Source: Nitrosovibrio sp. Nv4
Lineage (GTDB): Bacteria; Pseudomonadota; Gammaproteobacteria; Burkholderiales; Nitrosomonadaceae
DNA length: 64,000 nt
Assembly (NCBI GenBank): GCA_945860135.1
Contig: CAMAPK010000007.1
Span: 25,901-89,900 of the forward strand
Reading direction: 5' to 3'
Shown here piece by piece: positions 48,507 through 48,914 of this stretch. Under the pieces are notes generated by a model, which saw nothing but the letters and a program-made list of their open reading frames with translations, did not search any database and was not told the origin of the DNA. How positions within the stretch are numbered: position 1 is the first letter of the stretch; each line of letters starts with the position of its first letter. A program made the position numbers and the translations under genes.

Positions 48507-48914
48507 ATGTCTAGTAAAAAATCCATCATTTCTATTGCTGTTGGTTCCGCCTTTGCCGCAACTCTCGGCGCTGCACCCATCGCCTTTGCGGCTGACAACC
48601 CCTTCGCCATCCAGTCCCTGGACAAAGGCTACATGGTGGCCGATGCCCATGGGTATGGTGAGAAGAAAGCCGGTGAAGGCAAATGCGGTGGAATGAAAGC
48701 GGGTGAGGGCAAATGTGGCGCAAAAGCCAGTGAAGGCTTGTGTGGTGCGACCATGGCAGATATCAACAAGGATGGCAAGGTCAGTAAGGAAGAATGGACC
48801 AAGCATCACGACGCCATGTTTGAGCATTTGGATGCCAACAAGGATGGCTTTATCGATAAGGCCGAAACAGGAAAAGGCGAAATGGCCAAGAAGAAAACAG
48901 AAAAGAGCAAATGA
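48507..48914 (+). CDS. Bufferin/HvfA-like EGKCG-repeat protein with EF-hand-like domain
   Basis: Signal peptide; NPFAIQSLDKGYMVAD; AGEGKCGGMKAGEGKCGAKASEGLCGA; EF-hand loops DINKDGKVSKEE and DANKDGFIDKAE. Confidence 0.75.
   Translation: MSSKKSIISIAVGSAFAATLGAAPIAFAADNPFAIQSLDKGYMVADAHGYGEKKAGEGKCGGMKAGEGKCGAKASEGLCGATMADINKDGKVSKEEWTKHHDAMFEHLDANKDGFIDKAETGKGEMAKKKTEKSK

What the first reader, a model, noticed from the sequence alone, without database searches (positions are those of the whole stretch)
48507..48914. Bufferin/HvfA-like EGKCG-repeat peptide fused to an EF-hand-like domain
The sequence shows a signal peptide, NPFAIQSLDKGYMVAD, then EGKCGG / EGKCGA / EGLCGA repeats, then two EF-hand-like loops (DINKDGKVSKEE, DANKDGFIDKAE). 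EGKCG repeats are the modification sites of HvfA/bufferin RiPPs, where MNIO (DUF692) enzymes convert Cys to oxazolone/thioamide for metal binding. A combined Cys-RiPP and EF-hand protein, with no MNIO or HvfC partner gene seen in this window, would be an orphan metallo-RiPP variant. Neighbours (TonB receptors, FecIR, RND) fit a metal context.
Basis: partly seen in the sequence, partly recalled or inferred. Interest (0 to 1): 0.85.

Follow-up and report, generated by a model that had tools for sequence, protein, structure and literature searches.

The report
Second copy of copper-peptide/EF-hand precursor
The window encodes a small exported protein with three EGxCG cysteine motifs joined to a calcium-binding-type EF-hand pair; it is a solitary second copy of an already described family of copper-binding peptide precursors, and the enzymes expected to modify it are present elsewhere in the same genome, so it is not an orphan.

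Summary
Window 48507-48914 (+) encodes 135 aa: Sec signal peptide, EGKCG, EGKCG, EGLCG and two EF-hand loops. The 'orphan' reading is wrong. The genome carries, on contig C11, a compact operon of an 81%-identical paralogue, an HvfB-type MNIO (NCBIfam equivalog, 432 bits) and HvfC (276 bits). EGKCG|EF-hand chimaeras were already described by Leprevost et al. 2025 (PMC12452194), which also reports stand-alone bufferin precursors. The window gene is a stand-alone paralogue, probably matured in trans by that HvfBC pair to 5-thiooxazole, Cu(I)-binding sites; this is inferred, not shown. Support: unlinked copies recur in six genomes of the genus with all three motifs kept; dN/dS is about 0.07-0.12; the signal peptide, which acts as RiPP leader in HvfA and bufferin, has positions near-invariant in HvfB-positive relatives. 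In a sister genus without HvfB the EF-hand protein persists, but all eight copies lost every mature cysteine and those leader positions drifted. That is one clade, effectively one event. By NCBIfam's HvfA-repeat cut-off the window protein falls short (15.2 against 19.5 bits). Ordinary member of a known kind; modest interest.

The parts
48495..48499 (+). Shine-Dalgarno AGGAG of the precursor gene
   Evidence: sequence
48507..48914 (+). stand-alone EGKCG|EF-hand precursor CDS, 135 aa
   Evidence: orthologues in five sister genomes, dN/dS about 0.07-0.12
48507..48590 (+). Sec signal peptide (residues 1-28, AFA|AD) that probably doubles as the RiPP leader
   Evidence: sequence; near-invariant S9, A11, G13, S14, A15 in HvfB-lineage relatives, drifted in g4; role by analogy with HvfA and bufferin
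48591..48644 (+). conserved segment after the signal peptide, ADNPFAIQSLDKGYMVAD (residues 29-46)
   Evidence: F33 42/42, P32 41/42, G41 41/42 in HvfB-lineage relatives
48675..48689 (+). EGKCG motif 1 (Cys60), putative 5-thiooxazole site
   Evidence: sequence; kept in all six unlinked copies of the genus
48705..48719 (+). EGKCG motif 2 (Cys70), putative 5-thiooxazole site
   Evidence: sequence; EGKCG, EGTCG or EGSCG in orthologues
48732..48746 (+). EGLCG motif 3 (Cys79), putative 5-thiooxazole site
   Evidence: sequence; EGLCG or EGMCG in orthologues
48759..48794 (+). EF-hand loop 1, DINKDGKVSKEE
   Evidence: PF13202
48831..48866 (+). EF-hand loop 2, DANKDGFIDKAE, 12 residues after loop 1
   Evidence: PF00036

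Best explanation
The gene encodes a stand-alone second substrate of the genome's HvfBC maturation pair. Proposed steps: (1) the precursor is made with a Sec signal peptide that HvfC's RRE-containing domain recognises as a leader [inferred; shown in other species for HvfA and bufferin]; (2) HvfB, encoded with HvfC on contig C11, converts the EGxCG cysteines to 5-thiooxazoles in trans [inferred]; (3) the protein is exported by Sec and the signal peptide removed [predicted from sequence]; (4) the flexible modified segment binds Cu(I), and perhaps other soft metals, in the periplasm, while the EF-hand pair binds Ca2+ and folds the C-terminal half [inferred]. Having one copy in the hvfABC operon and one elsewhere would give extra binding capacity and separate regulation. 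Likely context: copper handling in an ammonia oxidiser of the Nitrosomonadaceae, whose ammonia monooxygenase is copper-dependent (general knowledge).
For: Operon on C11: 124-aa paralogue (81% identical), then HvfB at 432 bits (cut-off 360), then HvfC at 276 bits (cut-off 142) with the NGO1945_C domain. More distant chimaeras (Thiobacillus, Lysobacter, Moraxellaceae, Tahibacter) are directly followed by MNIO and HvfC. Unlinked copies recur in G000-G003, G006 and G007 with all three GxCG motifs, and the same six genomes hold a linked copy plus HvfBC. Purifying selection on the unlinked copy. Leader: S9 42/42, G13 41/42, S14 40/42, F33 42/42 in the HvfB-lineage set; between the window clade and Nitrosospira-type unlinked paralogues the signal peptide is more alike (0.67) than the EF-hands (0.53). 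In genus g4, which lacks HvfB over cut-off in 9/9 genomes, all eight chimaera homologues have no mature Cys; S9 falls to 2/8, G13 3/8, S14 4/8, A15 1/8; against g2 linked one-Cys copies the EF-hands are 0.61 identical but the signal peptide only 0.37. HvfBC acts poorly on HvfA without its signal peptide (PMC13419390). FonBC tolerates A, R and T at the Lys position of EGKCG (PMC12668002).
Against: No modification, copper binding or expression was measured. The NCBIfam HvfA repeat model scores the window protein below its cut-off (15.2 against 19.5). The cysteines are 10 and 9 residues apart, not in the usual EGKCGEGKCG pair, and no test of EGLCG as a substrate was found; a FonA peptide with a single repeat was not modified in vitro. 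The g4 losses form one clade (support 82/85), so they count as about one event. No DoxX was found in this 89%-complete genome.
Confidence: 0.72

Rival explanations
1. The solitary copy is no longer modified: it works as a periplasmic EF-hand Ca2+-binding protein, its cysteines binding metal as plain thiols or forming disulphides.
For: EF-hand proteins without any EGxCG motif persist in HvfB-less g4 genomes and in Nitrosomonas, so the EF-hand part has a function of its own. The gene is unlinked and its motifs score under the HvfA cut-off.
Against: Leader and all three GxCG motifs are kept in every unlinked copy of the genus, with synonymous codon changes between copies, while HvfB-less g4 relatives lose both.
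Confidence: 0.17
2. Redundant recent duplicate without a distinct role, maintained only by dosage or by exchange with the operon copy.
For: In the tree linked and unlinked copies of the genus intermingle (2 and 3 label changes), as repeated duplication or gene conversion would give; G004 carries a truncated copy.
Against: The locus is shared with its BNR neighbour in G002, G006 and G007, with at least the start of that gene in G003, and dN/dS is about 0.07-0.12.
Confidence: 0.09
3. Orphan metallo-RiPP with no maturase.
For: No MNIO or HvfC in the 64-kb window.
Against: HvfB and HvfC are both in the genome on contig C11.
Confidence: 0.02

Closest known systems
[quoted passage not shown] 2025, PMC12452194)
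   Same: N-terminal hydrophobic helix or Sec signal peptide, short EGKCG domain without 17-residue repeats, two EF-hand_5 domains at the C-terminus, EGKCG part predicted unstructured
   Different: The chimaeras coloured in that paper's networks are those linked to MNIO genes; the window copy is unlinked. The authors' Buf_EGKCG profile was not available here.
HvfA / oxazolin (H. influenzae) and other captophorins (fontiphorin, gonophorin)
   Same: signal peptide, EGKCG motifs, HvfB and HvfC in the genome
   Different: HvfA has three AEGKCGEGKCG repeats and no EF-hand; the window protein has three single motifs and an EF-hand pair, and scores below NCBIfam's HvfA-repeat cut-off
Bufferins Buf1 (DUF2282) and Buf2
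   Same: Sec-exported MNIO substrates for copper stress; stand-alone precursors also reported
   Different: different cysteine scaffolds; no EF-hand
Lanmodulin and EfhP
   Same: exported EF-hand proteins; 12-residue spacing between loops as in lanmodulin
   Different: no Pro at loop position 2; NCBIfam LanM score 19 against a cut-off of 135; the same spacing is seen in ordinary bacterial EF-hand proteins

Membership tests
Buf_EGKCG|EF-hand_5 chimaera (Leprevost 2025) | two EF-hand_5 domains at the C-terminus | tested here: met
   PF13202, 2 stretches, 42.6 bits
Buf_EGKCG|EF-hand_5 chimaera (Leprevost 2025) | short EGKCG domain without 17-residue repeats, after an N-terminal hydrophobic helix | tested here: met
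   sequence; residues 44-76 have pLDDT under 50 in a low-confidence model
Buf_EGKCG|EF-hand_5 chimaera (Leprevost 2025) | match to the authors' Buf_EGKCG profile | not testable with these tools
   profile not held
HvfA (NCBIfam NF050137) | score over 19.5 bits | tested here: not met
   15.2 bits for the window protein; the operon paralogue gets 17.3 alone and 20.5, or 25.7 with neighbouring stretches, in the genome search
HvfABC-type pathway in the genome | HvfB-type MNIO | tested here: met
   NF003818 432 bits, cut-off 360
HvfABC-type pathway in the genome | HvfC with DUF2063 and RRE-type C-terminal domain | tested here: met
   NF050145 276 bits, PF09836 90 and PF22106 90 bits
HvfABC-type pathway in the genome | precursor adjacent to MNIO and HvfC | tested here: not met
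   true for the C11 paralogue, not for the window gene
HvfABC-type pathway in the genome | DoxX-like HvfX | tested here: not met
   no PF07681 in the 89%-complete genome; Leprevost 2025 reports these genes in various combinations
captophorin (5-thiooxazole metallophore) | Cys converted to 5-thiooxazole; Cu binding | not testable with these tools
   needs mass spectrometry and metal-binding assays
lanmodulin | LanM profile and Pro at position 2 of EF loops | tested here: not met
   NF053806 19 bits, cut-off 135; loops start DINKDG and DANKDG

The most novel reading that the evidence does not exclude
The HvfA-type Sec signal peptide works as a portable RiPP leader: one HvfBC pair matures several unlinked exported proteins with different folded domains behind the same leader (EF-hand pairs here; possibly the LTXXQ/Spy-like paralogue on contig C12), so that maturation is a genome-wide, signal-peptide-addressed process and not a gene-cluster one.
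Probability: 0.25. Interest if true: 0.55.

Novelty: new member of a known kind. Interest (0 to 1): 0.33.

Why it matters
It corrects an apparent orphan and gives a natural test of how this RiPP class works. Relatives with HvfB keep both the leader-like signal peptide and the EGxCG cysteines, while a sister genus without HvfB keeps the EF-hand protein but has lost the cysteines and let the leader drift. That pattern is what trans-acting, signal-peptide-addressed maturation predicts, and it can be tested directly with one three-gene co-expression.

Tried and rejected
Orphan hypothesis: rejected by the C11 operon. Lanmodulin-like lanthanide binding: the 12-residue loop spacing (119 of 121 pairs) matches LanM (12 to 13 residues, PMC11845868) but is also seen in ordinary Rhizobium and Agrobacterium EF-hand hits, and the LanM profile and Pro-2 are missing. 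Structure prediction gave mean pLDDT 51.5, too low for a fold search, so none was run. Upstream alignment of linked and unlinked copies shows a shared stretch just before the gene, but close homology can explain it and it is absent in the two g2 copies aligned; no regulatory claim is made. The LTXXQ paralogue as a third substrate: its cysteines do not track HvfB, so it is left as a lead.

Full report
What is there. Window 48507-48914 (+) is a 135-codon gene with a good ribosome-binding site. The protein has a Sec signal peptide (probable cleavage AFA|AD), the segment NPFAIQSLDKGYMVAD, the motifs EGKCG (Cys60), EGKCG (Cys70) and EGLCG (Cys79), and two canonical EF-hand loops at residues 85-96 and 109-120. 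Pfam accepts the EF-hands above cut-off. The HvfA-repeat model of NCBIfam gives 15.2 bits, below its cut-off of 19.5. A database search finds 512 homologues at E<=1e-3, and all of the best 120 carry at least one GxCG motif. The closest named relatives are Nitrosomonadaceae, a family of ammonia oxidisers.

It is not an orphan. The genome has exactly one MNIO (PF05114), on contig C11. It lies in a tight operon: a 124-aa paralogue of the window protein (L070:3866-4240), the MNIO (4315-5163) and a DUF2063 protein (5138-5902). NCBIfam calls these HvfB (432 bits, cut-off 360) and HvfC (276 bits, cut-off 142); HvfC also carries the NGO1945_C domain. The two precursors are 81% identical, signal peptide included. 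No DoxX was found in this 89%-complete genome.

The kind is known. Leprevost et al. 2025 (PMC12452194) describe EGKCG precursors of a second type with two EF-hand_5 domains behind a short, unstructured EGKCG part, discuss copper plus calcium roles, and report stand-alone precursor genes in the Buf1 and Buf2 families. The modification is now assigned as 5-thiooxazole (PMC12668002, PMC13419390). Outside the Nitrosomonadaceae, the EGKCG/EF-hand proteins found here in Thiobacillus, Lysobacter, Moraxellaceae and Tahibacter are followed directly by MNIO and HvfC, so the usual layout is a cluster and the window copy is the exception.

The stand-alone copy is maintained. In the same genus, unlinked copies occur in six genomes (G000-G003, G006, G007), each of which also has the linked copy and HvfB/HvfC. 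All six keep three GxCG motifs, with synonymous changes in the motif codons, and dN/dS against the window gene is about 0.07-0.12 for the four more distant orthologues. The downstream BNR gene is shared by G002, G006 and G007, and at least its start by G003; the upstream TonB and Slp genes are variable. In the tree, linked and unlinked copies of the genus intermingle, so repeated duplication or gene conversion is likely.

A natural test of the maturation link. Genus g4 of the same family has no HvfB over cut-off in 9 of 9 genomes; two of them have another MNIO type that reaches 210-220 bits on the HvfB model. Eight g4 genomes still have the EF-hand homologue, and none has a cysteine in the mature part; the stretch that reads EGRCGMSMVD in g2 (Nitrosospira-type) proteins reads, for example, GGGYGMSLMD there. 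In 42 HvfB-lineage sequences the signal peptide has near-invariant S9 (42), A11 (40), G13 (41), S14 (40) and A15 (39), followed by P32 (41) and F33 (42); in g4 the counts are S9 2/8, G13 3/8, S14 4/8, A15 1/8. Signal-peptide identity between the window clade and the g2 unlinked paralogues is 0.67 against 0.53 for the EF-hands; between g2 linked one-Cys copies and g4 it is 0.37 against 0.61. This matches the reported role of the Sec signal peptide as leader for HvfBC and bufferin. Limits: g4 is one clade (82/85), hence about one event; many rows are close relatives; for genomes above G036 the HvfB-lineage label rests on the PF05114 search, because the HvfB model was run only on the first 36 relatives of the family.

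Mechanism. I think it most likely (0.72) that the C11 HvfBC pair matures the window precursor in trans, that Sec exports it and that it binds Cu(I) in the periplasm, with Ca2+ on the EF-hands. Shown here: the anatomy, the genome's enzymes, the conservation and the co-loss pattern. Inferred: the modification, the leader role in this species, metal binding and function. Points of doubt are the cysteine spacing (10 and 9 residues instead of tight pairs) and the Leu in EGLCG; FonBC tolerates A, R and T at that place, but a single-repeat peptide was not modified.

Structure. AlphaFold2 gave mean pLDDT 51.5, with residues 44-76 under 50 and the EF-hand region at about 59-68. This agrees with a disordered cysteine segment but supports nothing further.

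Noticed in passing
L069:2611-3243 (-), own genome G000:C12:12414-13004: A third protein with a related signal peptide and linker (56% identity over window residues 1-73, 60.9 bits) joined to an LTXXQ/Spy-like domain, with GEGDCCGGMM. Cysteines in its relatives do not follow HvfB presence, so it is only a lead; Leprevost 2025 does not mention Spy, LTXXQ or CpxP.
   Followed up: partly
L123:2001-2225 and L125:2466-2690: Two g2 (Nitrosospira-type) genomes have a 74-aa EGKCG-only precursor next to a one-motif EF-hand chimaera beside the MNIO, so the EF-hand part is modular.
   Followed up: no
L108, L111, L113, L115, L117, L119: g2 clusters carry two tandem chimaeras before the MNIO: one with several cysteine motifs, one with a single EGRCG. 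A single-motif substrate is odd, since a one-repeat FonA peptide was not modified in vitro.
   Followed up: no
L082:1284-1464 (G004): Truncated unlinked copy whose 5' part is replaced by the end of a TonB-receptor-like frame; likely a pseudogene.
   Followed up: partly
window 49433-50695: BNR-like exported protein with a CTCCW motif and GCPVNGP, kept next to the precursor in sister genomes; possibly a metal-related beta-propeller.
   Followed up: no
window 45431-48288: TonB receptor and Slp lipoprotein upstream are absent, or differently placed, at this site in several sister genomes.
   Followed up: partly
L085 (G014:C89) and L090 (G026:C41): Two g4 genomes carry a non-HvfB MNIO (210-220 bits on the HvfB model) with genes that look like an ECF sigma factor and a membrane anti-sigma factor, and the LTXXQ gene, close by.
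   Followed up: no
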